From assembly GCF_013201705.1 (NCBI RefSeq), contig NZ_CP053837.1, positions 2,232,001 to 2,296,000 on the forward strand: a DNA stretch of 64,000 nt, read 5' to 3'. This document shows, in pieces, positions 43,386 to 64,000 of this stretch. Numbering within the stretch: position 1 is the first letter of the stretch; the number at the start of each line of letters is the position of its first letter. A program made the translations under genes and the position numbers. The DNA is from Aliarcobacter faecis. GTDB lineage: Bacteria > Campylobacterota > Campylobacteria > Campylobacterales > Arcobacteraceae. The notes under the pieces are model-generated. The model did no database searches, was not told the origin of the DNA, and saw nothing but the letters and a program-made list of their open reading frames with translations.

Positions 43386-43393
43386 TAAGATTT

Positions 43394-47928: not shown

Positions 47929-47933
47929 TATTC

Positions 47934-47948: not shown

Positions 47949-47971
47949 ATTTTATTTTTCAAGGAAAAAAA

Positions 47972-48968: not shown

Positions 48969-50083
48969 ACAGATATTTAGGTTCAAAAGAGCAATTAAGA
49001 GTATCTGATTTTGATTATGTAAAACAAGTGGCAATTGCTGTTGATACTTTGGGATATGATGGAGTTTTAATTCCAACTGGAAGATCTTGTGAAGACCCTT
49101 TTGTTGTAGCTTCAAGTTTAATAGGTTTTACACAAAACTTAAAATTCTTAGTTGCACTTAGACCAGGTCTTTTACAACCTGCATTAGCAGCAAGAATATC
49201 TTCAACACTAGATAGATTTTCAAATGGAAGAGTTGCTTTTAATTTAGTTGCTGGTGGAGATAAAGATGAACTAGAAGGTGATGGACTATTTCAAGATTCA
49301 GATGAGAGATATGAAGTAGCAACTGAATTTATAGATTTGTGGAAAGATATTTTAAAAGCTAGTTACGAAAAAGAGCTTGTAAATTTTGATGGAAAACATT
49401 ATAAAACAAGAAATTCAAAACTTCTATATTCACCTATTCAAAGACCACATCCTCCACTATTTTTTGGTGGAAGTTCACAAAAAGCTCATGAATTAGCTGC
49501 ACAAAAAGTTGATTTATATATAACTTGGGGTGAAACTCCAAAAGCAGTTAAAGCAAAAATTGATGATGTAAAAGAGAAAGCTTTAAAGTATGGAAGAACT
49601 CTAAAATTTGGAATTAGACTTCATGTAATTGTAAGAGAGAGTGAAGAAGAAGCTTGGGAAGCAGCCCAAAAACTAATAAGTAAACTTGATGATGAAAAAA
49701 TCAATGCTTCCCAAAATGCTTTACAAAAACTAGACTCTGAAGGTCAAAGATTAATGACTGCTTTAACAAATGGTGGAAAAGCAAGAACAAGAGAAGAGCT
49801 TGAGATTAGTCCAAACTTATGGGCAGGAATTGGTTTAGTTCGTGGTGGTTGTGCAACTGCCTTAGTTGGAAGTGCTGAAATTGTAGCCCAAAGGATACAA
49901 GAGTATGTAGATTTAGGAATAGATACTTTTGTATTTTCTGGTTATCCACACCTTGAAGAGTCTTTTAGATTTGCTGAACTTGTGTTTCCATTATTACCAA
50001 ATAAAACAAAAGAGAAACTATCAGGACTTGTACAATCAGGACCATTTGGTAGTGTAACAACTGAAGATTCAAAGGAACTATAA
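48926..50083 (+). CDS. ssuD: FMNH2-dependent alkanesulfonate monooxygenase 2
   Basis: The 385-residue SsuD paralogue keeps the canonical [10 protein letters not shown] cysteine motif, [37 protein letters not shown] and RLHVIVRE. It differs from SsuD1 in its central helices and C-terminal tail. The stop overlaps the next ATG by one base (TAATG). Two SsuD copies with different SsuA partners suggest a widened sulfonate range. Confidence 0.94.
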
Positions 50084-51243: not shown

Positions 51244-51244
51244 T

Positions 51245-51997
51245 ATGAGAAAAAATATAGAATATAGTTTATTCGGAATTGTTACTCTAATATTTATTTG
51301 GCAAGTATTAGTAATGATAGGAACTGCCGTAAATGACAATTATGTATATACTCAAATTACACCAATAAAGGCAATAAAAGCACTATGGGAATTGCTTTTT
51401 GAGACATCATTTTATGAACATATTTTTGCAAGTTTTTATAGAATTTTTTATGCACTATTTTTGGCATTATTAATAGGAATACCTCTAGGGTTGCTTTATT
51501 CTAGTAATGAAAAGATAAAAAAAGTATTTTATCTACCATTTCAAATATTAAGAATGATTTCTCCCTTATCATGGATGCCTATTGCAGTTTTAGTATATGA
51601 TAGTTGGGATGGAGCAATTATTTTCTTAATAGTTATGGCTGCTATATGGCCAATTATCTTCAATCTAACACAAGGTATGGCAAAAATTGACATAGGATGG
51701 ATATATGTTGCTAAAAGCTTTCAAGCCAATTTATTTAATCAATTAAGATATGCAATTATTCCAGCAATTGCCCAAGATTTAATAACAGGATTAAGATTAG
51801 CATTAGGAGTATCGTGGGTTATTATTGTACCAGCTGAATATTTAGGGGTAACTTCTGGTTTAGGTTATGCAATTAATGATGCAAGAGATACTTTAGATTA
51901 TTCTAAATTAGCAGCATTGATACTTGCAATAGGATTAATAGGATTTGCTATAGATTCTTTCTTACAAAGTTTAAATAATAAATTTAAATGGAATTAA
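51245..51997 (+). CDS. ABC importer permease (nitrate/sulfonate/taurine family)
   Basis: The 250-residue protein has six transmembrane helices and the BPD-type coupling region GWIYVAKSFQANLFNQLRYAIIPAIAQDLITGLRLALG broken by pattern (EAA-like loop). It follows the Tat-signal binding protein by one base and precedes the ATPase by 17. It is more diverged from SsuC than a simple duplicate would be. Substrate unknown, likely organosulfur. Confidence 0.85.
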   Translation: MRKNIEYSLFGIVTLIFIWQVLVMIGTAVNDNYVYTQITPIKAIKALWELLFETSFYEHIFASFYRIFYALFLALLIGIPLGLLYSSNEKIKKVFYLPFQILRMISPLSWMPIAVLVYDSWDGAIIFLIVMAAIWPIIFNLTQGMAKIDIGWIYVAKSFQANLFNQLRYAIIPAIAQDLITGLRLALGVSWVIIVPAEYLGVTSGLGYAINDARDTLDYSKLAALILAIGLIGFAIDSFLQSLNNKFKWN

Positions 51998-52014
51998 ATA
52001 AAAGGAATAAATAA

Positions 52015-52686
52015 ATGGTAGAAAAACAAGTTATTTTAGGTTCAAAAAAGCTTTATTATCAATATAAGAATTCTAAAGAACCCATTATTAATAATCTTAA
52101 CTTTGAATTATATGCACAAAGTAAAAGTGCAATAATTGGTCAAAGTGGTTGTGGAAAATCTACATTACTTAAACTAATAGCACCACTTATTCAACCAAAT
52201 TCAGGTGAAGTGTTTAATAACTCAAAAACAATAGGGTATATGTTTCAAGATGCTTATCTTTATCCTTGGTTAAATGTATATCAAAATGTTGTGATTGGTC
52301 TTAAAATATTAAAAAAACCTATTATTAAAGAAGAGATTATAAAACTACTTACTTGGCTTGGTTTAGAAGATCATATAAATAAAAAAACTATTGAACTGTC
52401 TGGTGGTCAAAGACAAAGAGTTTCACTAGCTAGAACATTGGCAATCTCTCCAGAAGTACTATTATTGGATGAGCCTTTTTCTAGCTTAGACCCTGATACT
52501 ACTAGGATATTGTGTAAAGATATTAATGAATATTGTGCAAAAAACAAAGCAACTTTATTAATAGTAACTCACAATTATGAAGAGGCAAAAATTTTAGCTG
52601 ATGATATTTATAGATTTGAAAAAACTCCTTTTGGAGTAACATATTTAGAATCTGTAAATAAAGAGTCTTTGACTTATATAATATAA
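52015..52686 (+). CDS. ABC importer ATPase (second organosulfur system)
   Basis: The 223-residue ATPase has Walker A (GQSGCGKST), a Q-loop MFQDAYLYPWLNV, signature LSGGQRQRVSLARTL, Walker B VLLLDEPFSSLD and switch THNYEEAKI. It is shorter than SsuB and close to the SsuB/TauB group. It completes the importer with the preceding two genes. The switch region ends in a histidine as required, so it should be active. Confidence 0.87.
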   Translation: MVEKQVILGSKKLYYQYKNSKEPIINNLNFELYAQSKSAIIGQSGCGKSTLLKLIAPLIQPNSGEVFNNSKTIGYMFQDAYLYPWLNVYQNVVIGLKILKKPIIKEEIIKLLTWLGLEDHINKKTIELSGGQRQRVSLARTLAISPEVLLLDEPFSSLDPDTTRILCKDINEYCAKNKATLLIVTHNYEEAKILADDIYRFEKTPFGVTYLESVNKESLTYII

Positions 52687-52707
52687 ATTAAAAAAAAGGA
52701 ATAAAAA

Positions 52708-53217
52708 ATGGCATATAAAAAAATAGATTTAGAGGGATTAAAAGAGTTACAAGTTAAAAGTAGAAATACTACAAATCCAATAAAAACACTTCAATGTAGA
52801 ACAGTTGCTGTTGAAAAATATAGACATGAAAACTATATAAGAAATTTAGATGCACATATAATTGATGAACCACCTGTATTATTAGGTGATGATACTGCTC
52901 CAAATCCAAGTGAAGCTGTACTTGCTGCTTTGGGTAGTTGTATCGCTGTAGGAATACAAGCTAATTTAGTAAATAGAGGAATTAATTTTACAAAAATTGA
53001 AATAAAACTAGAAGGTGATATTGATATTAGTGCGGTATGGGGAACTGGTGAATTATTGGATAAAACAATTGGTTTTACTCATATTAGAGTTAAGGTTGAT
53101 TTGGAATCTGATTTAGATGATAAACAAAGAGATGAATTAATTGAGCATGTCTTAAATTACTCTCCTGTTACTGGTACTATGAGAAATCCTGTAGAGGTTA
53201 AATATGTCTTACAATAA
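52708..53217 (+). CDS. OsmC-family protein
   Basis: The 169-residue protein has the OsmC pattern NPSEAVLAALGSCIAVGIQANLVNRGINFTKIEIKLEGDID (first catalytic cysteine in SCIAVG) and the C-terminal SPVTGTMRNPVEVKY. Typical OsmC/Ohr proteins reduce hydroperoxides with two cysteines; here the second motif CPVS is SPVTG, so the resolving cysteine is missing. It may thus handle organic sulfur or persulfide rather than peroxide. It overlaps the flavoprotein gene by 14 bases. Confidence 0.8.
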   Translation: MAYKKIDLEGLKELQVKSRNTTNPIKTLQCRTVAVEKYRHENYIRNLDAHIIDEPPVLLGDDTAPNPSEAVLAALGSCIAVGIQANLVNRGINFTKIEIKLEGDIDISAVWGTGELLDKTIGFTHIRVKVDLESDLDDKQRDELIEHVLNYSPVTGTMRNPVEVKYVLQ

Positions 53218-54268
53218 TTTAAATCTTGATAATTTATTAGCAAAATTAGAAAAACAAGTTTCCGATATTGATATTAAAGGTATTTATCCAGAAGAGATAA
53301 TTAGAGAATTTGCAAAATTAGATGCTTATAAATTAATTGATGAGAATGGAGTATTTAATTTTGAGTATGTAATTAATCTACAATCTCATGTGGCTTCTGT
53401 ATGTTTGAATACTGCTTTTTGTATGTGGTGTCAAAGTGCTTGTATTTGGTATTTAATAAATAGTGAAAATAGTTATTTAAAAGAGAATTTTTTAAAAGAT
53501 ATAATAGATGGGAAAGTCCTTGCTGGAACAGGACTTTCCAATGCTATGAAAGCTTTTGCTAATTTTGAAGAAGTAAAATTAAAAGCAGTTAAAACTGATG
53601 GTGGATATATAGTTAATGGTTCATTACCATTTGTTTCAAATGTCCAAAAAGGTCACTATTTTGGAGCATTAATTCAAATAGATAATGGTTATATAGTTGG
53701 ATTTATGGATACAAATAATGAAGCTATGTCAATACAAAATATTGATAATTTCTTTGCACTTAATGGTTCTGCTACAGTTAAAACAACTTTCAAAGATTAT
53801 TTTTTAGAAGAAAAATTTTTAATAAGTGATAATGGACAACAATTTATAGAAAAAATTAGACCTGGTTTTATTCTTTTACAATTAGCAATGGCATTGGGAA
53901 ATATTGATGCTTGTATAGATATTATTAAAAAAGAAGTAAAAAGAAAAGAGTATTTAAATAATGCGATTTTTGGAGATAAAGTAAGCTTATTTGAAAAGAA
54001 AAAAGAAGAGCTTTACTTTGGTTTAGACAAATATTTTACTAAGCCTTATACAAATCAAGTAAAAGAGTTAAAAGAGATTCTAAAAGCTAGATTAGAGGGA
54101 GCTTTATTATCACAAGAAGTTAGTAATGAAGCATTATTATGTAGTGGTGGAAGTCGTGGGTATTTTGAAAAATCAAATGCGTTTCGTAAACTAAAAGAGA
54201 GTTATTTTGTTGCTGTTGTAACACCTTCAATTAAACATCTAAAAATACTACTCTCTACTTTAAAGTAG
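53204..54268 (+). CDS. DszC/SfnB-like acyl-CoA-dehydrogenase-fold flavoprotein
   Basis: The 354-residue protein has the acyl-CoA dehydrogenase fold: LQSHVASVCLNTAFCMWCQSACIW in the N-terminal helical domain, VLAGTGLSNAMKAFANFEEVKLKAV in the beta domain, and CSGGSRGYFEKSNAFRKLKESYFVAVVTPSIKHL at the C-terminus. It resembles DszC/SfnB-type flavin enzymes that act on organosulfur compounds. Together with the importer and OsmC gene it suggests uptake and oxidation of a thioether, sulfone or related compound. It lacks a dedicated flavin reductase nearby. The substrate is unknown. Confidence 0.75.
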   Translation: MSYNNLNLDNLLAKLEKQVSDIDIKGIYPEEIIREFAKLDAYKLIDENGVFNFEYVINLQSHVASVCLNTAFCMWCQSACIWYLINSENSYLKENFLKDIIDGKVLAGTGLSNAMKAFANFEEVKLKAVKTDGGYIVNGSLPFVSNVQKGHYFGALIQIDNGYIVGFMDTNNEAMSIQNIDNFFALNGSATVKTTFKDYFLEEKFLISDNGQQFIEKIRPGFILLQLAMALGNIDACIDIIKKEVKRKEYLNNAIFGDKVSLFEKKKEELYFGLDKYFTKPYTNQVKELKEILKARLEGALLSQEVSNEALLCSGGSRGYFEKSNAFRKLKESYFVAVVTPSIKHLKILLSTLK

Positions 54269-54372
54269 ATTTTTATAACAAAAAAGAGGAAATAAAATTA
54301 AAAATCCATATAAAGACAAAGCCCTATTTATCGTTATTTCATAGAGAAATTAAAAAATATTTGATAAAACTA
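54269..54372. other. 3' region of the organosulfur operon
   Basis: This AT-rich stretch follows the flavoprotein gene and precedes the second sulfur promoter. I see no strong terminator and no gene in it, so read-through into the next operon is possible. Confidence 0.4.
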
Positions 54373-54422
54373 TTGACAAAAATATTTTTTATTACTATAA
54401 TTTCACCAGTTTAGTAGGTGAT
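54373..54422 (+). promoter_or_regulatory. Promoter and start-site operator of the cysteine/encapsulin operon
   Basis: TTGACA (54373-54378) and TATAAT (54396-54401) have a 17-base spacer. TTCACC-AGTTTAGTA-GGTGAT follows (54402-54422), an inverted repeat with TCACC/GGTGA arms at the expected start site. The promoter core and operator match those at 43257-43306 closely. Confidence 0.78.
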
Positions 54423-54447
54423 AGATGAAATATGCAAAAAATCACCT
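54416..54447 (+). promoter_or_regulatory. 5' leader hairpin with an alternative pairing partner
   Basis: AGGTGAT (54416-54422) pairs with ATCACCT (54441-54447). TCACCT (54442-54447) could instead pair with AGGTGA at 54510-54515, which covers the leader stop codon. Mutually exclusive pairings of this kind fit an attenuator, although this is by-eye structure. Confidence 0.45.
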
Positions 54448-54466
54448 AAGTTTGAAAGGATAAAAA

Positions 54467-54511
54467 ATGATGTGCGACATGTGTAAAATAAATAAGTACA
54501 AAAGAAAATAG
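54467..54511 (+). CDS. Cys/Met-rich leader peptide 2 (MMCDMCK type)
   Basis: ATG at 54467, six bases after AAAGGA, opens a 14-residue frame, MMCDMCKINKYKRK. It shares MMCDMCK with the leader at 43338 through synonymous codon differences, and the downstream residues diverge. It lies between the promoter and the sulfate-binding protein gene. Ribosome stalling at its cysteine or methionine codons could set operon expression; that mechanism is inferred. Confidence 0.75.
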   Translation: MMCDMCKINKYKRK

Positions 54512-54566
54512 GTGAGATTTTTTAAAAATCTTTAATTATTACACATTAGGTGTATTTTATATTGAA
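54511..54566 (+). promoter_or_regulatory. Conserved post-leader block, second copy
   Basis: GGTGAGATTTTTTAAAAATCT forms a dyad (54515-54531) with T-rich sequence after it. The dyad TACAC-ATTAG-GTGTA (54540-54554) follows, sharing the ACA-N5-TGT core with the sites upstream of both ssuA genes. Confidence 0.6.
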
Positions 54567-54579
54567 AGAGAAAAATAAC

Positions 54580-55653
54580 ATGATAAAAAATTTAAAAAAT
54601 ATAGCATTAGCAACATTACTAGTATCAACATTAGGTTTTGCGGACAATTATGATTATAAAGCAGAAGCTGCAAAGAAATCTATAGAGATTTTAAATGTCT
54701 CTTATGACCCAACAAGAGAGCTTTATGAGGAGTACAATAAAAACTTTTCAAAATATTGGAAAGATAAAACAGGACAAGATGTAACAATAAAACAGTCTCA
54801 TGGTGGTGCTGGAAAACAAGCTCGTGCTGTAATTGATGGATTAAAAGCAGATGTTGTTACTTTAGCACTTGCATATGATATTGATGCTATTAGCGAAAAA
54901 GCAAAGCTATTTCCAAAAGATTGGCAAAAAAAATTAGAGTTTAACTCATCGCCATATACTTCAACTATTGTATTTTTAGTTAGAAAAGGAAATCCAAAAG
55001 GTATTAAAGATTGGAATGATTTAATAAAAGATGGTGTCGAAGTTATTACTCCAAATCCAAAAACTTCAGGTGGTGCTAGATGGAACTATTTAGCTGCTTA
55101 TACTTATGGATTAAAACAAGAGCTAGGAAGTTTAGACAAAATTGATTTTAACTCTAGTGCTTATAAAAAAGCAGATGAAAAAGCAAAAGAGTTTGTTACA
55201 AAACTTTTAAAACATGTTCCTGTTCTTGATTCTGGTGCTAGAGGAGCAACTAATACATTTGTACAAAGAAAAATTGGAGATGTACTTTTAGCATGGGAAA
55301 ATGAAGCATTTTTAGCAATAAATGAACTTGGTAAAGATCAATTTGAAATCATTATTCCTTCTATTTCAATTTTAGCAGAACCACCAGTAACTGTTGTAGA
55401 TGAAAATGCTAAACAAAAAGGAACTTTAAATGTTTCAACAGAGTATTTAAAATATCTATATTCAAAAGATGGGCAAGAAATAGCAGCTAAAAACTATTAT
55501 AGACCAAGTCTTCCTGAACTTGTAGATAAAAAATATTTAGAGATTTTCCCAAAACTTGAGTTATTTAAAATTGATGATGTTTTTGGATCTTGGGCAAATG
55601 CACAAAAAACACACTTTGATGATGGTGGAACATTTGATTTAATTTATAAATAG
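54580..55653 (+). CDS. Sulfate/thiosulfate ABC importer, binding protein
   Basis: The 357-residue protein has a signal peptide ([20 protein letters not shown]) and the Sbp/CysP pattern: [63 protein letters not shown]. It binds sulfate or thiosulfate in the periplasm. ATG 54580 is preferred over the in-frame GTG at 54550, because it gives a clean signal peptide with AAAGAGA upstream. No cysT, cysW or cysA genes are in the window, so its permease is elsewhere. Confidence 0.9.
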
Positions 55654-55674
55654 TATAAATTAAAAGGAAACAAA

Positions 55675-56586
55675 GTGGCAAATAATACAATTTTAGATCT
55701 AGTTGGAAATACGCCACTAATAAAACTAAATAACTTAACAAAAGATTTAGATGGCGTAACTATCTATGCTAAGGCTGAATATTTAAACCCTAGTGGCTCT
55801 GTAAAAGATAGAGCGGCTAAGGGAATAATTTTAGAAGCAATAAAATCAAAAAAGCTTACAGATGAGAAGATTTTACTAGATAGTACAAGTGGAAATACAG
55901 GGATTGCTTATGCAATGTTTGGTGCAAATTTGGGATACAAAGTTACTGTAACTTTACCTAAAAATGCAAATTTTGAGAGAAAAAAGATTTTAAAAGCTTT
56001 TGGTGCAACTATTATAGAGACTGACCCTCTTTTAAGTTCAGATGGGGCATTAATTGAAGCAAAAAAATTAGCAAAAGAGAATCCAGAACTCTATTACTAT
56101 ACAAATCAGTATAACAATGAAGAGAATTGGAAAGCTCACTATAATGGAACTGCTTTAGAAATCTGGGAACAAAGTAAAAAACAAGTTACACATTTTATTA
56201 CAGGAATGGGAACTTCTGGAACTTTTGTGGGTACTTCAAAAAGGCTAAAAGAGTTAAACCCCCAAATAAAAACTATTGCTATGCAACCATCTTCACCATT
56301 TCATGGACTTGAAGGTATGAAGCATATGGCAACAACTATAGTTCCAGAAATTTATGATAGTTCACTAATTGATGAAACAATAGAAATTGATACAGAAGAT
56401 GCAAGAAGAACTGCTTTAGAGCTTATAAGAAAAGAGGGGCTTTTTGTAGGAATATCTTCAGGAGCAAATGTTTATGCAGCATTAAAATTGGCTAAAACTC
56501 TACCAAAAGGAAGTGTAGTTGTAACAATTCTATGTGATAGTGGTTTTAAATATTTAAGCGATAGCTTGTGGGAAGAAGATTTATGA
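55675..56586 (+). CDS. cysM: Cysteine synthase, CysM (sulfur-carrier-dependent type)
   Basis: The 303-residue PLP enzyme has the catalytic lysine in NPSGSVKDRAA (Lys44), STSGNTGIAYA, GMGTSGTFVGTSKRLKE and the end DSGFKYLSD. Together with adjacent CysO-like, JAMM and MoeZ-like genes it matches the CysM branch that uses a protein thiocarboxylate as sulfur donor and O-acetyl- or O-phosphoserine as acceptor. The start is GTG at 55675 with AAGGAA upstream. It overlaps the JAMM gene by four bases. Confidence 0.9.
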   Translation: MANNTILDLVGNTPLIKLNNLTKDLDGVTIYAKAEYLNPSGSVKDRAAKGIILEAIKSKKLTDEKILLDSTSGNTGIAYAMFGANLGYKVTVTLPKNANFERKKILKAFGATIIETDPLLSSDGALIEAKKLAKENPELYYYTNQYNNEENWKAHYNGTALEIWEQSKKQVTHFITGMGTSGTFVGTSKRLKELNPQIKTIAMQPSSPFHGLEGMKHMATTIVPEIYDSSLIDETIEIDTEDARRTALELIRKEGLFVGISSGANVYAALKLAKTLPKGSVVVTILCDSGFKYLSDSLWEEDL

Positions 56587-57005
56587 TAGAAATTAGTAAA
56601 AATCTTATGGATAAAATAAATGAACATGCCAAAATTGATTATCCATATGAGTGTTGTGGAATTCTTTTAGGTAAGTTTGAAAATGGTCAAAAAAGTGTTA
56701 GTGAAGTTATTGAGATATCAAATGAAAGAGAAGACGAAAACAAGCATAATAGATACCTAATCCCTTCAAAAAAGGTTTTAGAAGCAGAACTTTATGCTAT
56801 AAAAAATGGTTTAGATATAGTAGGTTTTTACCACTCTCATCCAAATCATAGTGCAACTCCATCACAATTTGATATAGATCATGCTCTTCCAGTTTACACA
56901 TATTTAATAGTGTCAGTTTATGACAAAGAAGTGGTTGATTATACTGTTTCAGTATTATCAAATGATAGATTAAAATTTGAAAAAGAAGAGATAAAAGGAG
57001 TTTAA
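56583..57005 (+). CDS. JAMM/MPN metallopeptidase (Mec-like)
   Basis: With ATG 56583 (ATGA overlap with cysM) this is 140 residues. It carries the full JAMM motif: a glutamate in YPYECCGILLG (Glu23), then HSHPNHSATPSQFD with His84, His86 and Asp97 as zinc ligands. Mec of mycobacteria releases cysteine from the CysO-Cys adduct. Here the neighbouring carrier ends in Gly-Gly-Leu, so this enzyme may also trim that leucine. An in-frame GTG at 56568 is an alternative start. Confidence 0.87.
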   Translation: MIEISKNLMDKINEHAKIDYPYECCGILLGKFENGQKSVSEVIEISNEREDENKHNRYLIPSKKVLEAELYAIKNGLDIVGFYHSHPNHSATPSQFDIDHALPVYTYLIVSVYDKEVVDYTVSVLSNDRLKFEKEEIKGV

Positions 57006-57006
57006 A

Positions 57007-57282
57007 ATGGCAAAAGTTTATATACCAACAGCCTTAAGACTATTTACAAATGGGCAATTTGAAATATCTTTACAAGGCGAAAATATAAAAGATATTGTAG
57101 GAAATTTAGTAGATGAGCATCAAGATTTGAAAACTCATCTATTTACAAATGAAGGAAAATTAAGAAGTTTTGTAAATATCTATCTAAATGAAGAGGATAT
57201 TAGAGGTTTAGATAATCTTGATACAAAAGTTTATGATGATGACAAAATTATTTTAGTTCCATCTATTGCAGGTGGTTTGTAA
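57007..57282 (+). CDS. cysO: CysO/MoaD/ThiS-family sulfur-carrier protein with C-terminal GGL
   Basis: The 91-residue ubiquitin-fold protein has strand motifs AKVYIPTALRLFTNGQ, LRSFVNIYLNEEDIRGLDNLDTKV and DDKIILVPSIAGGL. The double glycycl end is followed by one leucine, unlike mature CysO or ThiS, which end in Gly-Gly. That extra residue must be removed before adenylation; the JAMM gene just upstream is the likely protease. It then carries sulfur as a thiocarboxylate to CysM. One base separates it from the JAMM gene. Confidence 0.88.
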   Translation: MAKVYIPTALRLFTNGQFEISLQGENIKDIVGNLVDEHQDLKTHLFTNEGKLRSFVNIYLNEEDIRGLDNLDTKVYDDDKIILVPSIAGGL

Positions 57283-57284
57283 TT

Positions 57285-58454
57285 ATGGCAAAAGATGATA
57301 AGAGTGAGAAATATGAAAAGCTCTCACAAGAAGAGATAAGTAGATATAGTAGACATCTTATCTTACCTGAAGTGGGACTTGAAGGGCAACTAAAAATAAA
57401 AAATGCAAAAGTTTTAGTTGTAGGAACTGGTGGGCTTGGTGCTCCTGTTATTTTATACCTAGCTGCTGCTGGAGTTGGAACTATTGGTTTGATTGATTTT
57501 GATACTGTTGATGAATCAAATCTACAAAGACAGATTATTCATACAACAAAAGATATAGGGCGACCTAAAATATCTTCAGCAAATGACAGAATAAAAGGGA
57601 TAAACCCAAATGTTAAAGTTGTTTCATACAATGATAAATTAACAAGTAAAAACTCTTTAGAGATTATTAAAAACTTTGATATTGTTGTAGATGGAACAGA
57701 TAATTTTCAAACAAGATATTTAATAAATGACTCTTGTGTGATTTTAAATAAACCATTTGTTTATGGATCTATTTTTAGATTTGAAGGACAAGTAAGCGTT
57801 TTTAATGCAAATAGTAAAGCTTGTTATAGATGTTTATATCCCGAACCACCACCAGTTGGACTAGTTCCATCTTGTGCAGAGGGTGGTGTTATTGGTGTTT
57901 TACCAGGAGTTATAGGAACAATTCAAGCAAATGAGACAATCAAATTAATCTTAGGAATAGGAGAGGTTTTAAGTGGAAGACTTCTAATCTTTGATGCACT
58001 AAAAATGCAGTTCAAAGAGCTAAAAATAAGAAAAGATGAGAGTTGTCCAGTTTGTGGAAAAAATCCAACAATAACTGAACTTATTGATTATGAAGAGTTT
58101 TGTGGTTTAAAAAGCCCAGATGAAAGAGTTGAAGTTGAAGAGATAAGTGCAATAGATTTAAAAAATTTAATAAACGAAAAACGACCTTTTCAACTAATAG
58201 ATATTAGACAACCTCATGAGTTACAAATAGGAAAAATCGAAGGCTCAAAAGGGATACCTTTTGGACAATTAGTAAGAAGAAAAGATGAACTTGATACGAC
58301 AAGAAAAGTAGTAGTAATTTGTAAAATAGGACTTTTAAGTGCTGAAGTTATCAGACAATTAAAAGAAGCTGGTTATACAGGTGAGATATATAGTTTAAAA
58401 GGTGGTATTACATCTTGGGCAAACGATATAGATTACACAATGGCAAGATATTAA
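57285..58454 (+). CDS. MoeZ/ThiF-like adenylyltransferase with rhodanese domain
   Basis: The 389-residue protein has an E1-like ATP domain (VVGTGGLGAPVILYLAAAGVGTIGLIDFDTVDESNLQRQ pattern, residues 40-80), catalytic cysteine in SCAEGGV, and zinc pairs CYRCLYP and CPVCG. It ends in a rhodanese domain (about residues 285-385; VVVICKIGLLSAEV with its active-site cysteine). It activates the carrier C-terminus with ATP and passes sulfur to it. It lies between cysO and the encapsulin gene. Confidence 0.92.
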   Translation: MAKDDKSEKYEKLSQEEISRYSRHLILPEVGLEGQLKIKNAKVLVVGTGGLGAPVILYLAAAGVGTIGLIDFDTVDESNLQRQIIHTTKDIGRPKISSANDRIKGINPNVKVVSYNDKLTSKNSLEIIKNFDIVVDGTDNFQTRYLINDSCVILNKPFVYGSIFRFEGQVSVFNANSKACYRCLYPEPPPVGLVPSCAEGGVIGVLPGVIGTIQANETIKLILGIGEVLSGRLLIFDALKMQFKELKIRKDESCPVCGKNPTITELIDYEEFCGLKSPDERVEVEEISAIDLKNLINEKRPFQLIDIRQPHELQIGKIEGSKGIPFGQLVRRKDELDTTRKVVVICKIGLLSAEVIRQLKEAGYTGEIYSLKGGITSWANDIDYTMARY

Positions 58455-58486
58455 CAAAATATTAAATTAAAAAAAAGGGATACAAA

Positions 58487-59431
58487 ATGGCAGAGGAAAA
58501 TAAAATAGTAAGTTTAAGTGCAAAAGCAGCTTATAATTTGGCAGATGTTGCAAAAACAACACCAGTCTTTGATTCATTAACTCCAAGATGGGTTACAAGA
58601 CTGCTTGATTGGAAATCTTTAGATAGTGGGATTTTTAGACTAAACAAAGTAAAAGAGGGAGATACTCCACTTGATACTTTATGTTCACAAAAAATTCATA
58701 ATAAAATTCCAGAAGGGTTTGTGGATTATGAAGAAAATCCAAGAGAGTATCAATTAAACTCTATTCAGACAATTATAAATGTAAATACAAAAGTATCAGA
58801 TTTATATAGTTCTCCAACCCAACAAATTCAAGAGCAATTAAAACTTGCTATTGAAAGTTTAAAAGAGAGACAAGAGAGTGAGCTATTTAACAATGATGAT
58901 TATGGATTGTTAAATAATATTGATGATTCTCAAAGAGTTCAAAGCAGAACTGGAAGTCCAACACCTGATGATTTAGATGAGTTATTAACAAAAGTTTGGA
59001 AAGAGCCATCATTTTTCCTAGCACATCCAAGAGCAATAGCTGCATTTGGAAGAGAAGCTACAAGAAGAGGAGTTCCACCAGTAACTATAAATCTATTTGG
59101 AACATCATTTTTAAGTTGGAGAGGAGTGCCTATTATTCCTACAAATAAACTATTTGTTGATGGATTAAAAGAGCCAAAATCAAAAGCTGGAAAGACAAAT
59201 ATTTTGCTTGTTAGAACTGGTTTTGAAAAACAAGGTGTTGTTGGATTATTCCAAAATAATCTACCAAATGAACAATCACGAGGTTTATCTGTAAAATTTA
59301 GAGGAATAGATAACAACGGTGTTGGTTCATATCTTCTATCTTTATATTGTTCAGCAGTTATTTTATCAAAAGATGCAATAGCAGTTTTAGAAGATGTAGA
59401 TGTAGGAAACTACTATGATTACGCACAATAA
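58487..59431 (+). CDS. srpI: Family 2A encapsulin shell protein
   Basis: The 314-residue protein matches Family 2A encapsulins (SrpI of Synechococcus). It has the N-terminal arm and LTPRWVTRLLDWKSLDSGIFRLNKV, the SRTGSPTPDDLDELLTKVWKEPSFFLAHPRAIAAFGREATRRGVPP region (about 153-195), and RGVPIIPTNKLF followed by FEKQGVVGLFQNNLP. Its gene precedes the desulfurase with a 17-base overlap, the usual shell-cargo order. It should self-assemble into an HK97-fold compartment. The identification is from sequence memory and should be checked by a profile search. Confidence 0.92.
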   Translation: MAEENKIVSLSAKAAYNLADVAKTTPVFDSLTPRWVTRLLDWKSLDSGIFRLNKVKEGDTPLDTLCSQKIHNKIPEGFVDYEENPREYQLNSIQTIINVNTKVSDLYSSPTQQIQEQLKLAIESLKERQESELFNNDDYGLLNNIDDSQRVQSRTGSPTPDDLDELLTKVWKEPSFFLAHPRAIAAFGREATRRGVPPVTINLFGTSFLSWRGVPIIPTNKLFVDGLKEPKSKAGKTNILLVRTGFEKQGVVGLFQNNLPNEQSRGLSVKFRGIDNNGVGSYLLSLYCSAVILSKDAIAVLEDVDVGNYYDYAQ

Positions 59432-60887
59432 TTTACCAAGCTTTGATGAAGAGTTTTACAAAAATCAGATAGAAATTTTGGCAAATCAAGCATTTCCTGA
59501 GTTTAATAAAAATAATTTAGATGACTTTGCTAGTGATTTTGCCAAAGATTTTGATTATGAAAAAGTTATACAAACAAATTTTTATGAAACTAAAGAAGTA
59601 TCAAATTTTGAAACTTTTTCAAATATAAAAATAGTTCCACAAAATAGTAACTCTTATGAGATATTTGATGTAGAAGCGATAAGAAGAGATTTTCCAGTTT
59701 TAAATCAAAAAGTAAATGGCAATTATCCACTTATTTGGTTGGATAATGCAGCAACTACACAAAAACCAAAAAGTGTGATTGATAGAATTATCCACTTTTA
59801 TGAGTATGAAAATTCAAATATTCATAGAGGGGCTCATACTTTAGCAGCAAGGGCAACAGATGCTTATGAAGAGGCTAGAAAAAAAGTAGCAAAATTTATA
59901 AATGCACCTAGCCAAAACAATATTATTTTTGTAAGAGGTGCAACAGAAGCTATAAATTTAATAGCTCATAGTTTTGGAAAAATCCATATACAAAAAGATG
60001 ATGAGATAATAGTTTCAAATTTAGAACATCATGCAAATATCGTACCTTGGCAGATTTTAAGTAGCCAAACTGGGGCTAAATTAAAAGTTATTCCAGTTGA
60101 TAATGATGGGCAAATTTTACTAAATGAGTTTGAAAGACTTATAACTCCTAAAACAAAAATAGTATCTATTACTCATGTATCAAATGCCTTAGGAACAATA
60201 GTTCCAATAAAACAAGTAATTGAAATTGCTCATAGATATGGAGTGAAAGTTCTAATAGATGGAGCGCAAGGAGTATCACATATAAAAACTGATGTTCAAG
60301 AGCTTGATTGTGATTTTTATATTTTTTCAGGACATAAAGTATTTGCTCCAACTGGAATTGGTGCAATTTATGCTAAAAAAGAGCTTTTAAATATTATGCA
60401 ACCATATCAAGCTGGTGGAAATATGATAGCTGATGTTACTTTTGAAAAAACAGTTTATCAAGAAGCCCCAAATAAGTTCGAAGCAGGTACAGGAAATATT
60501 GCAGATGCAGTTGGATTGGGTGCTGCTCTTGATTATGTTAGTAAAATTGGAATAGAAAATATTTACAATTATGAACATAAACTTTTAGAGTATGCAATAG
60601 CTAAAATGGGTGAGATTACAGGGCTTAGATTTATAGGAACTGCAAAAGAGAAAACAAGTGTTTTATCATTTGTTCTTGATGGATATGATACTACAAAAGT
60701 GGGAGAGTATCTTACAAGCAAAGGTATAGCTTTGAGATTTGGACACCATTGTGCACAACCTATATTAAGAAGATTTGGAGTTGAAGCAACAGTTCGACCA
60801 TCTATTGCTTTTTACAATACAAAAGAAGAGATAGATTTTTTAGTACAAACTATAAAAGAGTTTAAGAATAGTAGTTTAGGAAGGTAA
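59415..60887 (+). CDS. Cysteine desulfurase, probable encapsulin cargo
   Basis: The 490-residue protein has a PLP desulfurase domain from about residue 84: WLDNAATTQKPK, EHHANIVPW, the lysine in FSGHKVFAPTGIG (Lys308) and the active-site cysteine in RFGHHCAQPILRRFG (Cys446). That is SufS-type. Residues 1-80 are an acidic, Phe- and Asn-rich extension (PSFDEEFYKNQIE, DDFASDFAKDFDYEK) absent from housekeeping SufS. Family 2A cargo enzymes carry such disordered targeting tails. It converts cysteine to alanine and sulfane sulfur, so it may load S0 into the shell. Confidence 0.93.
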   Translation: MITHNNLPSFDEEFYKNQIEILANQAFPEFNKNNLDDFASDFAKDFDYEKVIQTNFYETKEVSNFETFSNIKIVPQNSNSYEIFDVEAIRRDFPVLNQKVNGNYPLIWLDNAATTQKPKSVIDRIIHFYEYENSNIHRGAHTLAARATDAYEEARKKVAKFINAPSQNNIIFVRGATEAINLIAHSFGKIHIQKDDEIIVSNLEHHANIVPWQILSSQTGAKLKVIPVDNDGQILLNEFERLITPKTKIVSITHVSNALGTIVPIKQVIEIAHRYGVKVLIDGAQGVSHIKTDVQELDCDFYIFSGHKVFAPTGIGAIYAKKELLNIMQPYQAGGNMIADVTFEKTVYQEAPNKFEAGTGNIADAVGLGAALDYVSKIGIENIYNYEHKLLEYAIAKMGEITGLRFIGTAKEKTSVLSFVLDGYDTTKVGEYLTSKGIALRFGHHCAQPILRRFGVEATVRPSIAFYNTKEEIDFLVQTIKEFKNSSLGR

Positions 60888-60889
60888 TT

Positions 60890-62224
60890 ATGAATAGAAG
60901 AGATTTATTAAAATTAGGAACATTAGTTACAGCAGTAACTGCAACATCTGTTTTTGGAGCAACTCAAGTAAAAGAGGAGCCAAAAAAAGAGGAAAAAATT
61001 ATAAAACCACTAAATAATGGTGATAGAGTAATCATCATTGGTGGAGGATTTGCAGGTTTAACTGTTGCAAAAAATATAAAATTAAATAATGCTAAAGCAG
61101 AAGTTATAGTTTTTGAGTCAAAGAATATATTTGCATCTTGTCCATATAGCAATTTATGGTTTGGTGGAGTTAAAAATGTTGATTATAATAACTTAGTTTT
61201 TTCACCTTTAAAACCTGCTTCAAACTATGATTTTGACATTATAAATGATAAAGTTGTATCAATAAATAGAGATAAAAAATTAGTTACTACTTTAAATGGA
61301 AGCTATGAATACTCTTTATTAGTTATATCAACAGGAATAGAGTATGATTATTCAACTTTTGGATTAGATGAAAAAGAGGCAAGAAAAGCTTACTCAAAAT
61401 TTCCAGCTAGTTATAATGGTGGATTTGAGCAATTATCTCTAAAAGAAAATATTGAGAACTTTAAAGGTGGAGTTTTTGTTATAACAGTACCAAAAGGTAT
61501 CTATAGATGTCCACCTGCTCCTTACGAAAGAGCCTCTTTAGTTGCTGATTATTTTAAATCTAAAAAGATAAATGCAAAAGTTGTTGTATTAGATCCAAGA
61601 GAGAAACCAGCAGCTAAAGCAAAAGGATTTTTAGAAGCATTTAATACTTTATATAAAGATTATTTAGAGTATATTCCAAATGCAAATATTACAAAAATCG
61701 ATGTAGATAAAAAAACTATCTTTTATGATAAAACAAATCTAAAAGAAGCAGAAACTACAAAAGAGAGTCTAGTTTTTGATGATGCAAATATTATTCCTAG
61801 CAATAAAGCTTCTAAACTTTTAGCAAATAGTGGTTTAGAATTAACACCAGAAGGGTGGGGAAGAGTAAAAACACCAACATTTAGAAGTTTAAATGATGAT
61901 AGTGTATATTTAGTTGGAGATGTTCTAGGAGAGTATCCTTTCCCAAAAAGTGCTCAAATGGCACACTCTTGTGGAATTATTCTTGGTGAACAAATAGCAA
62001 AAAGATTAAATAAAGAAGACCCAAAAGAGGGTAGTGTATATCCACAAAATGTATGTTACTCTTTAGTAAGTCAAAATAGTGGAATTTATGTAACTCATAA
62101 AGCATATTTAGATACAGATGGAAAAGTAAAAGTTAAAACTGAGCTTTTTGAAGATATAGAAAAAGAGACATTTGATTCAACAAAAGCTTGGTATGCTGGT
62201 ATTACTTCAAATATTTTTGAGTAA
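60890..62224 (+). CDS. Sulfide dehydrogenase flavoprotein (FCSD/SoxF-like), Tat-exported
   Basis: The 444-residue protein begins with a Tat signal (MNRRDLLKLGTLVTAVTATSVFG) and an FAD motif (VIIIGGGFAGLTVAKNI). FCSD features are FASCPYSNLWFGG, IYRCPPAPYERASLVADYF and VGDVLGEYPFPKSAQMA. Cys207 and Cys389 correspond in spacing to the redox disulfide pair of flavocytochrome c sulfide dehydrogenase; Cys84 is an extra. It oxidises sulfide to polysulfide or sulfur in the periplasm. No cytochrome subunit is adjacent. It is two bases from the desulfurase stop. Confidence 0.88.
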   Translation: MNRRDLLKLGTLVTAVTATSVFGATQVKEEPKKEEKIIKPLNNGDRVIIIGGGFAGLTVAKNIKLNNAKAEVIVFESKNIFASCPYSNLWFGGVKNVDYNNLVFSPLKPASNYDFDIINDKVVSINRDKKLVTTLNGSYEYSLLVISTGIEYDYSTFGLDEKEARKAYSKFPASYNGGFEQLSLKENIENFKGGVFVITVPKGIYRCPPAPYERASLVADYFKSKKINAKVVVLDPREKPAAKAKGFLEAFNTLYKDYLEYIPNANITKIDVDKKTIFYDKTNLKEAETTKESLVFDDANIIPSNKASKLLANSGLELTPEGWGRVKTPTFRSLNDDSVYLVGDVLGEYPFPKSAQMAHSCGIILGEQIAKRLNKEDPKEGSVYPQNVCYSLVSQNSGIYVTHKAYLDTDGKVKVKTELFEDIEKETFDSTKAWYAGITSNIFE

Positions 62225-62246
62225 AGGGTTTTAAACCCTTTATTTT
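62223..62246 (+). terminator. Terminator-like hairpin inside the operon
   Basis: AAAGGGTTT-T-AAACCCTTT (62223-62241) is a perfect stem ending in TATTTT. It lies between the flavoprotein and EAL genes, so it may reduce expression of the EAL-cysE end. Confidence 0.6.
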
Positions 62247-62259
62247 AATAAGGGTTAAA

Positions 62260-63480
62260 ATGATAGATAAAGAGAATGAAGAGAATAGAATAAATCTTCC
62301 AAATAGAAAAGTTTTTATTAAAGACAACAAAGATAACAAATTCAATAAAGTTGCAATCTTTGATATAAATGGATTTGGAAATATAAACCACTATTATGGA
62401 TATGAGTTTGGGGAAAAGGTTTTAAAAATAATATCTTTGAGATTGGTAGAGAAATTTTTAAATAGTAATATTTACTATTTAGGAGGAGATATTTTTGCTG
62501 CTACTTCAAGTAGTGATATTTCAAAAGATAGATTTATTCAAACTGTAAAAGCTATTATTTGGTATTTTGGATACTCTCCCATTGAACTTGATGGTTATAA
62601 AGTATATATACCTTTAAGAGCTGGAGTTGCTATAAATTATACAGAACTTCTTTTTAGTGCAGAATTTGCACTAAAACAAACAAGAGTTGTAAAACATAAT
62701 TTAGTTATTTATGATAGCGAGCAACACGATATTTGTCATCCAACCTCTTCAACTATAGAACAAGATTTATATTGGGAAACACAAATTATTCAAGCTATAA
62801 AAAAAGATAAATTTGAGATTTTTGCTCAATCAATTAATAATCAGAATGAAAAAAAATATGAGATTTTAGTAAGAATGAAAGACTCAAAAGGAAAAATTGT
62901 CTCTCCTTATTTTTTTATAGATAGGTCAAAAAAGATAAATTTATATAGCGAAATTACAAAAAAAGTAATTCAAAAATCTTTTGAGTTTTTTGAAAATAGA
63001 TCTATTCAGTTTAGTATAAATCTATCAATTAGTGATATTTTAGAGAAAGATGTTATTGATTTTTTAATTCAAAAAATATATGAGTTTGATATTGGAGATT
63101 TTTTAACTATTGAAATAACAGAGAGTGAAGGGATAGAAAGTCTTGAAGAGGTAATCTCTTTTATAAAAATAGTTAAAAACTTAGGAGTAAAAATTGCAAT
63201 AGATGATTTTGGTACAGGTTACTCAAATTTTTCATATTTAGTAAAACTCCAAGCAGATTTTATAAAAATTGATGGCTCTATAATTCAAGATATAAATAGA
63301 TCAAAAACAGCAAAGGCTGTAATTGAAGCAATAGTATTTTTTGCACAAAAAGTAGGTATGAAAACTATCGCTGAATTTGTCTCTTCAAAAGAGATTTATG
63401 AAAGTTGTAAAGAGTTAAATATCGACTATTTTCAAGGGTATTGGTTTGATGAACCAAAAAATGTTAAAGATTTAAAATAG
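62260..63480 (+). CDS. Degenerate GGDEF plus EAL-domain protein
   Basis: The 406-residue protein has an N-terminal GGDEF-like domain with a decayed active site (YLGGDIFAATSS in place of GGDEF) at about residues 1-160. An EAL domain follows (about 165-400). Its motif reads YEILVRM, and DDFGTGYSNFSYL, the KIDGS lysine and QGYWF are present, so hydrolysis of cyclic di-GMP is plausible. No transmembrane segment or sensor domain is seen. Its location inside a sulfur operon is unusual. Confidence 0.85.
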   Translation: MIDKENEENRINLPNRKVFIKDNKDNKFNKVAIFDINGFGNINHYYGYEFGEKVLKIISLRLVEKFLNSNIYYLGGDIFAATSSSDISKDRFIQTVKAIIWYFGYSPIELDGYKVYIPLRAGVAINYTELLFSAEFALKQTRVVKHNLVIYDSEQHDICHPTSSTIEQDLYWETQIIQAIKKDKFEIFAQSINNQNEKKYEILVRMKDSKGKIVSPYFFIDRSKKINLYSEITKKVIQKSFEFFENRSIQFSINLSISDILEKDVIDFLIQKIYEFDIGDFLTIEITESEGIESLEEVISFIKIVKNLGVKIAIDDFGTGYSNFSYLVKLQADFIKIDGSIIQDINRSKTAKAVIEAIVFFAQKVGMKTIAEFVSSKEIYESCKELNIDYFQGYWFDEPKNVKDLK

Positions 63481-63495
63481 GTAAGGATTACTTAA

Positions 63496-64000
63496 ATGGG
63501 AATAAGTAAAAATGGAAAAATAAAATTATTTGAACAGATAAAAGAGGATTTTAATCTTCCAAAAAATAATGATCCTGCATTAAATTCAAGATTAGAAATT
63601 TTTTTTAATTACCCTGGTGTTTGGGCAATAATAAATTATAGAGTGGCAAATAAATTCTATTTAAAAGGCTTTAAAAGATTAGCGAGAGTTTATAGTGGGA
63701 TTAGTCAATTTCTAACAAATACTGATATTCATCCAGCAGCAACTATTGGAAGAAGAGTTTTTATTGACCATGGAATTGGTGTTGTTATTGGCGAAACTAC
63801 AATTATTGAAGATGATGTTTTAATTTATCAAGGTGTTACTCTTGGAGGTGTTAGTTTAAATAAAGGCAAAAGACATCCAACCATTAAATCAAATAGTGTT
63901 ATTGGAAGTGGTGCAAAAGTTTTAGGTAATATTACTGTTGGTTCTAATAGCAAAATTGGTGCAAATTCAGTTGTAATAAATGATATTCCTGATTATTCAA
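63496..64000 (+). CDS. cysE: Serine O-acetyltransferase, partial (runs off the window)
   Basis: The frame opens at ATG 63496, seven bases after AAGGAT, and stays open to the window end. It shows the SAT pattern: [20 protein letters not shown], then left-handed beta-helix repeats ([42 protein letters not shown]). It acetylates serine to O-acetylserine, the acceptor for CysM. The C-terminus, including the cysteine-feedback tail if present, is outside the window. Confidence 0.94.

What the first reader, a model, noticed from the sequence alone, without database searches (positions are those of the whole stretch)
54373..64000. Family 2A encapsulin/cysteine-desulfurase operon joined to thiocarboxylate cysteine synthesis
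The sequence shows, in one direction with gaps of 0-35 bases, genes for a sulfate-binding protein, CysM, a JAMM peptidase, a CysO-like carrier, a MoeZ-like activator, an encapsulin shell, a cysteine desulfurase, a sulfide dehydrogenase, an EAL protein and CysE. Family 2A shells with desulfurase cargo are known, from Synechococcus SrpI and others. The combination with a CysO/JAMM route and a periplasmic sulfide dehydrogenase in a Campylobacterota genome is, as far as I know, not described. A consistent reading is a sulfur economy: make cysteine from sulfide, then desulfurate it inside a shell to store S0.
Basis: partly seen in the sequence, partly recalled or inferred. Interest (0 to 1): 0.95.

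Follow-up and report, generated by a model that had tools for sequence, protein, structure and literature searches.

The report
Encapsulin operon with ubiquitin-like sulfur carrier
This bacterial operon makes a protein nanocompartment that pulls sulfur off cysteine, next to a ubiquitin-like carrier system that can rebuild cysteine from such sulfur; the pairing turns out to be a recurring module in several bacterial phyla, which suggests how sulfur might get back out of the compartment.

Summary
The genes are real and correctly named: 58487-59431 is a family 2A encapsulin shell (NF041162, 494.9 bits, cut-off 380) and 59415-60887 its desulfurase cargo (NF041166, 819.9, cut-off 800). Upstream lie a cysteine synthase, JAMM peptidase, CysO-like carrier and E1-rhodanese. 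This is no oddity of one genome: of 51 related shell loci with enough flank, 46 carry E1, carrier and JAMM. All 84 shells with an E1-rhodanese nearby fall in one clade (SH-aLRT 100); the 29 sampled shells outside it with enough flank have none. In 50 of 80 loci the carrier is fused to the E1; separate intact carriers all have residues after GG (32 of 32 rows), so the carrier is a pro-protein and the JAMM its likely protease. The sulfide dehydrogenase and EAL gene were not found in shell loci outside the genus. Upstream are a perfect sigma-70 promoter and a conserved MMCDMC leader ORF, hinting at induction by cysteine shortage. Best reading: an encapsulated sulfur store with its own withdrawal route (store, E1 rhodanese, carrier, CysM, cysteine). 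The module is shown; the sulfur flow is inferred. New variant of a known kind.

The parts
54373..54401 (+). sigma-70-type promoter TTGACA-17-TATAAT
   Evidence: 12 of 12 matches, the only 12-of-12 site in 54200-64000; TTGACA in 19 of 24 aligned leaders
54401..54423 (+). palindrome-like TTTCACC-AGTTTAGTA-GGTGATA at the promoter, candidate Rrf2-type operator (inference)
   Evidence: recognisable in 19 of 24 leaders; same element at 43285-43307
54467..54511 (+). short leader ORF MMCDMCKINKYKRK with two Cys codons
   Evidence: second copy at 43338 upstream of ssuA, 0.03 matches expected by chance in the window at up to 3 mismatches; 24 of 26 family matches lie upstream of sbp or ssuA homologues; codon counts
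54580..55653 (+). sulfate ABC transporter substrate-binding protein (resident sulfate operon)
   Evidence: NF008022 495 bits
55675..56586 (+). CysM-like cysteine synthase, first gene of the module
   Evidence: PF00291; TIGR01138 338 bits, below cut-off 394; matches CysM 2bht and 3dwg_A
56583..57005 (+). JAMM/Mov34 metallopeptidase (HSHP..S..D motif)
   Evidence: PF14464 77 bits; matches 2kcq; motif in 70 of 71 module JAMMs
57007..57282 (+). CysO-like carrier ending ...SIAGGL, one residue beyond GG
   Evidence: PF02597; matches 3dwg_C (recorded as cfp10A, which is CysO by recall), whose chain ends at GG
57285..58454 (+). MoeZ-like E1 with C-terminal rhodanese domain (CKIGLLS loop, two CxxC)
   Evidence: PF00899 290 bits, PF00581 53.6 bits; motifs
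58487..59431 (+). family 2A encapsulin shell protein
   Evidence: NF041162 494.9 bits, PF19307 324.7 bits; SrpI 6x8m E 1.1e-112
59415..60887 (+). encapsulin cargo cysteine desulfurase with short N-terminal region (motif IEILANQAFPEF)
   Evidence: NF041166 819.9 bits, cut-off 800
60890..62224 (+). flavocytochrome c sulfide dehydrogenase flavoprotein with a Tat-like N-terminus (by eye); resident gene
   Evidence: PF21706 96.8 bits; 3vrd_B, both redox Cys regions aligned
62260..63480 (+). EAL protein with weak GGDEF region (resident gene)
   Evidence: PF00563 177 bits; beside MoeZ in 6 of 10 shell-less genus loci
63496..64000 (+). serine O-acetyltransferase CysE, cut by window end
   Evidence: TIGR01172 221.5 bits; complete in L002
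42739..43197 (+). Rrf2-family regulator, likely controller of this sulfur region (inference)
   Evidence: PF02082 117.9 bits; a stretch ending GGLGI-stop like its C-terminus directly precedes the leader in 5 of 24 leader loci

Best explanation
This is a thiocarboxylate-linked form of the family 2A encapsulin/cysteine desulfurase system. The cargo desulfurase, held in the shell by its N-terminal motif, converts cysteine to alanine and leaves sulfane sulfur in the shell (published for relatives; not shown here). The withdrawal route is encoded alongside. The JAMM peptidase trims the pro-carrier after its GG (here it removes one Leu; in more than half of the related loci it would cut the carrier off a carrier-E1 fusion). 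The E1 adenylates the carrier, and its rhodanese domain takes sulfane sulfur from the shell or its cargo and makes the carrier thiocarboxylate. CysM adds this to O-acetylserine from CysE (or O-phosphoserine), and the JAMM releases free cysteine. The pair works as a sulfur buffer that can be filled and emptied. In this Aliarcobacter relative it sits in the sulfate-uptake operon, under a promoter with a Cys-codon leader peptide and probably an Rrf2 regulator, so it is expressed when cysteine is short. Shown: gene identities, recurring module, one shell clade, encoded residues after GG, promoter and leader. Inferred: sulfur flow between shell and E1, JAMM as the maturation protease, regulation.
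For: Families and catalytic motifs. Module: of the 80 nearest shell loci 70 have the E1, 69 a carrier, 63 JAMM, 78 CD; 46 of 51 with enough flank have E1, carrier and JAMM. All 84 shells with an E1-rhodanese within 9 kb are in one SH-aLRT 100 clade of 95 rows; 29 sampled shells outside with at least 1.5 kb upstream have none. Carrier fused to E1 in 50 of 80; separate intact carriers have residues after GG in 32 of 32 rows; one JAMM-carrier ORF. Correlated divergence, 0 of 500 permutations each: carrier-E1 r 0.91, shell-CD 0.90, CD-E1 0.75, shell-E1 0.60. In the genus, JAMM of this score and size only in shell carriers. In print: the sulfur source for CysO loading by MoeZR 'so far remains unknown' and a desulfurase was suggested (PMC3227635, passages); JAB was predicted to free fused carriers (PMC1779556, passages); the shell may store sulfur (PMC8049743, passages).
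Against: No biochemical data. Cysteine to store to cysteine is futile unless the two halves run at different times. G005 has shell, carrier (GGI) and E1 but no PF14464 match in its genome and no CysM at the locus, so JAMM is not strictly needed or that copy is decaying. A second shell in G116 has an E1 but no carrier or JAMM on its 6.7-kb contig. In the clade of 95, 6 shells lack the E1. A CysM/K-type synthase is within 9 kb in only 37 of 80 loci. Shell-JAMM divergence correlates weakly (r 0.27). One fused carrier (L084) has AGE in place of GG. Classic operons do without this route (0 of 16 shells in one phylum sample, 12 of them 2A-like). The window CysM is below the cysM cut-off, and its use of a carrier is untested. 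The leader RNA shows no compensatory changes.
Confidence: 0.5

Rival explanations
1. One reading: one-way sulfur economy. Sulfide enters through CysO/CysM and CysK, surplus cysteine is desulfurated in the shell and stored as S0; carrier and E1 serve synthesis only, and the periplasmic sulfide dehydrogenase takes part.
For: Sulfate uptake genes and NMT1-type uptake plus flavin monooxygenase genes surround the operon, PAPS-reductase-family and sulfite-reductase-family genes are in the genome, and such shells are published as sulfur stores (PMC10960027, passages). CysE and CysK are in the operon. In G013 the sulfide dehydrogenase lies directly after CysE of the module.
Against: The rhodanese domain implies a sulfane, not sulfide, donor; free sulfide is already served by CysK. 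FCSD was not found in the 80 nearest shell loci, nor at the loci of G012 and G005 in the genus (G030: on another contig). A Cys-codon leader would switch the operon on when cysteine is scarce.
Confidence: 0.25
2. The genes are only neighbours in a sulfur regulon; shell and thiocarboxylate route share regulation but no sulfur atoms.
For: In this genus the block lies in a long sulfur-uptake region with a shared leader and promoter type. CysE and rhodanese are the commonest neighbours of family 2A operons (PMC8346489, section 8 part 1). Shell-cargo and carrier-E1 diverge more tightly within than between the two halves.
Against: The order carrier-E1-shell-CD with short gaps recurs across phyla, and the E1 was seen only in one shell clade of the sample.
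Confidence: 0.15
3. Carrier, E1 and JAMM form a ubiquitin-like conjugation system (as in sampylation or urmylation) that tags the shell or the desulfurase and so controls assembly or loading; cysteine synthesis is secondary.
For: The JAMM best matches a desampylase model (67 bits, below its 130 cut-off) and the carrier a SAMP1 model (53.6, below 60). Conjugation roles for E1-JAB operons were proposed in PMC1779556 (passages).
Against: A cysteine synthase is part of the block here and in 37 of 80 relatives; the E1 has a rhodanese domain; no E2-like gene was noticed (no E2 profile was run).
Confidence: 0.08

Closest known systems
Family 2A encapsulin with cysteine desulfurase cargo (SrpI/CyD, Synechococcus elongatus pANL)
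   Same: Shell 54% identical, adjacent desulfurase, CysE and CysK nearby; starvation-linked (PMC8049743, passages, and its section 10)
   Different: pANL has a lone rhodanese and no carrier, E1 or JAMM within 8 kb; the clade of this shell has an 8-9 residue insertion VDGLKxPKSxxGKTN, and its cargos mostly an FP-type motif and seldom the YYFL motif
CysO-CysM-Mec+-MoeZR cysteine pathway of mycobacteria
   Same: Carrier, cysteine synthase, JAMM peptidase and E1-rhodanese of the same families (PMC3227635 passages)
   Different: The solved mycobacterial carrier ends at GG; here the carrier has an extra residue or is fused to E1, and the set is tied to an encapsulin and desulfurase
Operon class 4c of Iyer and colleagues 2006 (ThiS/MoaD-like, E1-rhodanese, JAB, cysteine synthase)
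   Same: The same four genes (PMC1779556 passages)
   Different: No encapsulin or desulfurase in that class in the passages seen
Wolinella HcyS/HcyD/HcyF/MetY methionine route (recalled, no paper on it held)
   Same: Carrier with one extra C-terminal residue removed by a JAMM protease; Campylobacterota
   Different: Makes homocysteine with MetY; E1 without rhodanese; no encapsulin

Membership tests
Family 2A encapsulin shell | passes the family 2A model and lacks a cNMP-binding domain | tested here: met
   NF041162 494.9 bits, cut-off 380; Pfam finds only PF19307 in 314 aa
Family 2A encapsulin shell | assembles into an icosahedral compartment | not testable with these tools
   needs electron microscopy; homology to 6x8m only
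Family 2A desulfurase cargo | passes cargo model, catalytic Cys and PLP Lys | tested here: met
   NF041166 819.9, cut-off 800; RxGxHCA-type in 77 of 79 and GHK-type Lys in 79 of 79 module cargos
Family 2A desulfurase cargo | N-terminal motif like LARLANEFFS | tested here: met
   IEILANQAFPEF in the window, by eye; by regular expression an FP-type motif in 68 of 91 clade cargo rows and 0 of 30 others, a looser L..LAN-like string in 68 of 91 and 25 of 30
Family 2A desulfurase cargo | second motif like AASPYYFLDG | tested here: not met
   absent in the window; YYFL-type string in 2 of 91 clade rows, 14 of 30 others; in the published work a fragment with this motif was not sufficient for loading
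CysO/CysM/Mec+/MoeZ pathway | CysO-type carrier, JAMM peptidase and E1-rhodanese together with a cysteine synthase | tested here: met
CysO/CysM/Mec+/MoeZ pathway | carrier ends in free GG | tested here: not met
   encoded tail is GGL; 32 of 32 intact separate carrier rows have residues after GG
CysO/CysM/Mec+/MoeZ pathway | cysteine synthase accepts the carrier thiocarboxylate and O-phosphoserine | not tested
   cysM model 338 bits, below cut-off 394; residues for substrate choice not compared
Flavocytochrome c sulfide dehydrogenase | flavoprotein with both redox Cys | tested here: met
   CPPAPYERA and QNVCYS regions align to 3vrd_B; that these are the redox Cys is recalled
Flavocytochrome c sulfide dehydrogenase | partner cytochrome c subunit adjacent | tested here: not met
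   neighbours are CD and EAL; the rest of the genome was not searched for it

The most novel reading that the evidence does not exclude
A further operon type of encapsulin in which a ubiquitin-like carrier, its E1 and a JAMM peptidase form the unloading gear of a protein-walled sulfur store. The E1's rhodanese draws sulfane sulfur from the filled shell, a processed pro-carrier takes it as thiocarboxylate, and cysteine is rebuilt. This would supply the unknown sulfur source of CysO-type carriers and a missing exit path of sulfur encapsulins, in several phyla.
Probability: 0.4. Interest if true: 0.88.

Novelty: new variant of a known kind. Interest (0 to 1): 0.68.

Why it matters
Two open questions meet here. 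What becomes of the sulfur that a desulfurase encapsulin takes off cysteine (left open between handing on and storage in PMC8049743, passages), and what loads CysO-type carriers in cells (source unknown, PMC3227635, passages)? A recurring gene module, including translational fusion of the carrier to its E1, links the two and makes both testable with one set of five or six purified proteins. It also marks out a separate shell clade with its own cargo motif, and shows an apparent ubiquitin-like pro-protein tied to a virus-derived compartment.

Tried and rejected
Module as an oddity of this genome: rejected. FCSD and EAL as parts of the system: rejected; blastp with the window proteins found neither in L007-L086. 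EAL sits beside MoeZ in 6 of 10 shell-less genus loci and follows sbp in four further shell-less loci; FCSD follows sbp in one shell-less locus (L254) but is in none of the 10, so its resident status rests on less. Simple insertion of a foreign cassette into a resident operon that already had CysO and MoeZ: weakened, because the resident MoeZ copies nest among the genus module copies in a midpoint-rooted tree (nesting support 92/85) and their carriers have lost GG (6 loci, one more), so they look like reduced copies of the module. A frameshift hiding the GG: looked for by eye and not found. RNA attenuator structure in the leader: no compensatory change in 10 predicted pairs, so only the leader ORF, promoter and palindromes are claimed. 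Rfam: no match at gathering threshold. A first carrier profile picked up wrong ORFs and was rebuilt. MoeZ-ENC single ORF in L047: set aside as a probable lost stop, since an RBS-like GGAGG and ATG lie at the junction. No structure prediction was run. For one search, L148 (lone rhodanese) and L223 (rhodanese fragment 5 kb away) hit the MoeZ profile and were set by hand to 'none'.

Literature limits: one search listed 40 of 132 papers with two or more of the terms encapsulin, thiocarboxylate, JAMM, CysO, MoeZ, sulfur carrier protein; one of the 40 held 'encapsulin' (PMC11131023, one mention each of two terms, not opened). One search was swamped (23,359 papers, one listed) because 'ThiS' matched 'this'. 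Searches searched encapsulin with other terms. In the main texts of the two key encapsulin papers, JAMM, MoaD, ThiF, MoeB and thiocarboxyl occur 0 times (PMC8346489; PMC8049743). Supplements, subscription papers and Benisch 2024 were not seen, so absence from print is not shown.
Full report
What is in the window. Ten + strand genes run from a perfect sigma-70 promoter match at 54373-54401 to the window end: sulfate-binding protein, cysteine synthase (CysM-like), JAMM peptidase, CysO-like carrier, E1 with rhodanese domain, family 2A encapsulin shell, its desulfurase cargo, flavocytochrome c sulfide dehydrogenase flavoprotein, EAL protein and CysE. The genome continues the same way with the rest of CysE, CysK, a small ORF, a FadL-type porin and the permease genes CysT-CysW-CysA. 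Upstream (42739-54268) are an Rrf2 regulator, NMT1-type substrate-binding genes with ABC permease and ATPase genes that look like sulfonate uptake, and two luciferase-type monooxygenases. The genome also has two strong PF01507 (PAPS reductase family) and one strong PF01077 (sulfite/nitrite reductase) match.

Shell and cargo. The shell passes the family 2A model by a wide margin and matches the solved SrpI shell over nearly its whole length. The cargo passes the family 2A cargo model (819.9 bits, cut-off 800). It has a short N-terminal region with IEILANQAFPEF, like the published targeting motif LARLANEFFS, but lacks the second published motif.

The carrier system. The carrier matches 3dwg_C, recorded as cfp10A and recalled to be mycobacterial CysO, from an entry whose chain A is cysteine synthase B; the JAMM matches 2kcq. 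The solved carrier ends in GG; here the encoded tail is GGL. HcyS-Ala of Wolinella, which is trimmed by its JAMM, is recalled, not seen.

How general it is. A scan of one genome per species with the window shell gave 480 relatives, of which the best 80 were kept; this set is biased to shells like this one. Within 9 kb on the same strand, 78 of 80 have the desulfurase, 70 the E1, 69 a carrier, 63 a JAMM, 48 CysE and 37 a CysM/CysK-type synthase. Of 51 with at least 4 kb before and 3 kb after the shell, 48 have the E1, 46 have E1, carrier and JAMM, and 27 have these and a synthase. A full-length E1-rhodanese (over 75% of the profile) was taken for 82 of 83 labelled first shells. By record labels the 80 lie in ten phyla, and nine of these have loci with all three genes; many records are MAGs. 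In 50 of 80 the carrier is fused to the N-terminus of the E1 as ...AIAGG-linker-E1. Separate carriers have 1-20 residues after IAGG: 32 of 32 intact rows (tail of L235 read), two partial ORFs dropped; three of the 32 (L117, L165, L166) repeat contigs already counted, and L120 and L146 encode identical shells. One locus has JAMM and carrier in one ORF (L049). So the carrier looks like a pro-protein, and the JAMM beside it is the natural candidate to free its GG, as Iyer and colleagues suggested for fused carriers (PMC1779556, passages).

A sample less tied to this shell. PF19307 was searched in evenly drawn genomes of four phyla. Campylobacterota: 10 of 397 genomes, all 10 with E1, carrier and JAMM within about 9 kb of a shell, in one (G435) 6-7 kb away rather than adjacent. 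The phylum of an Enterobacter locus: 17 of 398, 16 without the centre, 0 of 16 with the module; four of the 16 are family 2B-like. The phylum of a Planctomycetota locus: 12 of 246, 11 without the centre with 12 shells, 2 of 12; several contigs are short. Classic loci on plasmids, read for contrast, are Azospirillum ENC-CD-CysE, Synechococcus CysK-CysE-SrpI-CyD-rhodanese and Variovorax rhodanese-CysE-ENC-CD, without carrier, E1 or JAMM. The module is therefore one operon type among several.

One clade. Shells were labelled by an E1 (MoeZ profile) hit within 9 kb on the same strand; two lone-rhodanese cases were set to none by hand. In a tree of 128 shells all 84 labelled ones fall in one clade of 95 rows (SH-aLRT 100) with 6 lacking it and 5 with under 1.5 kb upstream; outside it are 29 without and 4 with too little flank (quick method, no bootstrap; L008 enters twice and some rows repeat a contig). 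The label needs 6 changes against a shuffled mean of 36.4. The rows of that clade share an insertion of about 8-9 residues, VDGLKxPKSxxGKTN, which the classic 2A shells outside lack; some rows outside, mostly 2B-like, have other or shorter residues there. Pairwise distances of the module proteins correlate (0 of 500 permutations reached the value in each case): carrier-E1 0.91, shell-cargo 0.90, cargo-E1 0.75, carrier-cargo 0.71, carrier-JAMM 0.71, JAMM-E1 0.71, shell-E1 0.60, carrier-shell 0.54, JAMM-cargo 0.47, shell-JAMM 0.27. The two halves are tighter within than between, so re-pairing may have happened.

History in the genus. The shell is in 5 of 104 family genomes, all one genus. Four of the five have a JAMM of 77-83 bits in a 146-aa ORF; of the 26 shell-less genomes five have other PF14464 matches of 36-47 bits and none of that type. 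The exception, G005, lacks JAMM and, at the locus, CysM. A. cibarius carries the set on a mobilizable plasmid, with IS elements inside the region. Shell-less relatives keep a sulfate operon: in the ten loci read, the sulfate-binding gene in seven, a carrier in six, EAL in six. The six carriers, and a seventh in G003, have no GG. Two shell carriers hold a second MoeZ copy with FCSD and EAL beside it. These resident MoeZ copies nest among the genus module copies in a midpoint-rooted tree (nesting support 92/85), so they may be reduced copies of the module.

Control. Between promoter and first gene lies an ORF that reads MMCDMCKINKYKRK. A second copy precedes ssuA at 43338; two such matches did not occur in any of 100 shuffles of the window. 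In the family 22 of 104 genomes match the 22-base pattern with up to 2 mismatches, the reversed control in none; 19 of the 22 are in the genus, 19 of its 31 genomes. Of 26 sites, 24 are followed, 112-156 bases after the leader ATG, by an alignment to the sulfate-binding protein (19) or an SsuA-type protein (5); two sites are not. 20 of 24 keep MMCDMC; the first Cys codon is TGC in 20 and TGT in 2, Asp GAC in 17 and GAT in 6. Campylobacter jejuni has a candidate Met-codon leader, MMYQMR, before a methionine transporter gene (PMC11955535, passages). Folding of the alignment gives no compensatory changes, so an RNA switch is not claimed. The likely meaning is induction when charged Cys-tRNA is low; in S. 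elongatus the shell rises on sulfate deprivation (PMC8049743, passages).

Mechanism. What is shown is a recurring, clade-bound module with intact catalytic motifs in what was tested: JAMM motif 70 of 71, rhodanese loop 80 of 82, cargo Cys motif 77 of 79, GG in 78 of 78 (a fused carrier outside that set, in L084, reads AGE there). What is inferred is the sulfur path: cysteine to store by the cargo, store to rhodanese, rhodanese to carrier thiocarboxylate, carrier to cysteine by CysM, release by JAMM. The reading explains why a rhodanese (alone in classic loci, as an E1 domain here) goes with these shells, and gives a donor for CysO-type carriers, which the mycobacterial work left open (PMC3227635, passages). 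It does not by itself explain why a cell would cycle cysteine; filling in plenty and emptying in need would.

Novelty. Shell, cargo and the four-gene carrier operon are each known. Their recurring union as one operon type, the carrier-E1 fusions within it and the matching shell clade were not met in the papers seen: one search listed 40 of 132 papers, and the main texts of the two key encapsulin papers never mention JAMM, MoaD, ThiF, MoeB or thiocarboxylates. Supplements and subscription papers could not be seen, and the large encapsulin survey reports CysE and rhodaneses as the most enriched accessory genes (PMC8346489, section 8 part 1), which may include E1-rhodanese proteins.

Noticed in passing
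window 54467-54511 and 43338-43385: Conserved Cys-codon leader ORF MMCDMC(K/R/N) upstream of sulfate and sulfonate-type operons, matched in 19 of 31 genus genomes; looks like a cysteine-sensing leader peptide that I have not seen described.
   Followed up: partly
L122-L125, L127, L128 and L244 carriers: Shell-less genus members keep a CysO-like gene whose product has lost the GG tail; the MoeZ copies read from such genomes keep E1 and rhodanese motifs; role unknown.
   Followed up: partly
L047:8639-10942: Carrier-E1 ORF runs in frame into the encapsulin ORF (768 aa); an RBS-like GGAGG and ATG at the junction suggest a lost stop, but a real fusion is not excluded.
   Followed up: no
L049:8074-8796: JAMM peptidase and carrier in one 241-aa ORF in a Treponema MAG.
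   Followed up: no
L146 (A. cibarius plasmid pACIB) 8930-13979: IS110 and IS5 elements sit inside the module; a lone rhodanese piece remains before the shell.
   Followed up: no
L008:8333-10288: Two encapsulin shell genes in tandem behind one carrier-E1 fusion in a Lentisphaerae MAG.
   Followed up: no
window 36092-40611: By eye a TonB receptor with a secretin-like N-terminus, a FecR-like and a sigma-factor-like gene, a FecI/FecR/FecA-type set (not profiled).
   Followed up: no
window 54401-54423, 43285-43307: Palindromic TTTCACC..GATGATA/GGTGATA overlapping both promoters; candidate operator of the Rrf2 protein at 42739-43197.
   Followed up: no
G116, L131 and L133: One Campylobacterales genome has two family 2A-type shells; the second has an E1-rhodanese but no carrier or JAMM found on its short contig.
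   Followed up: no
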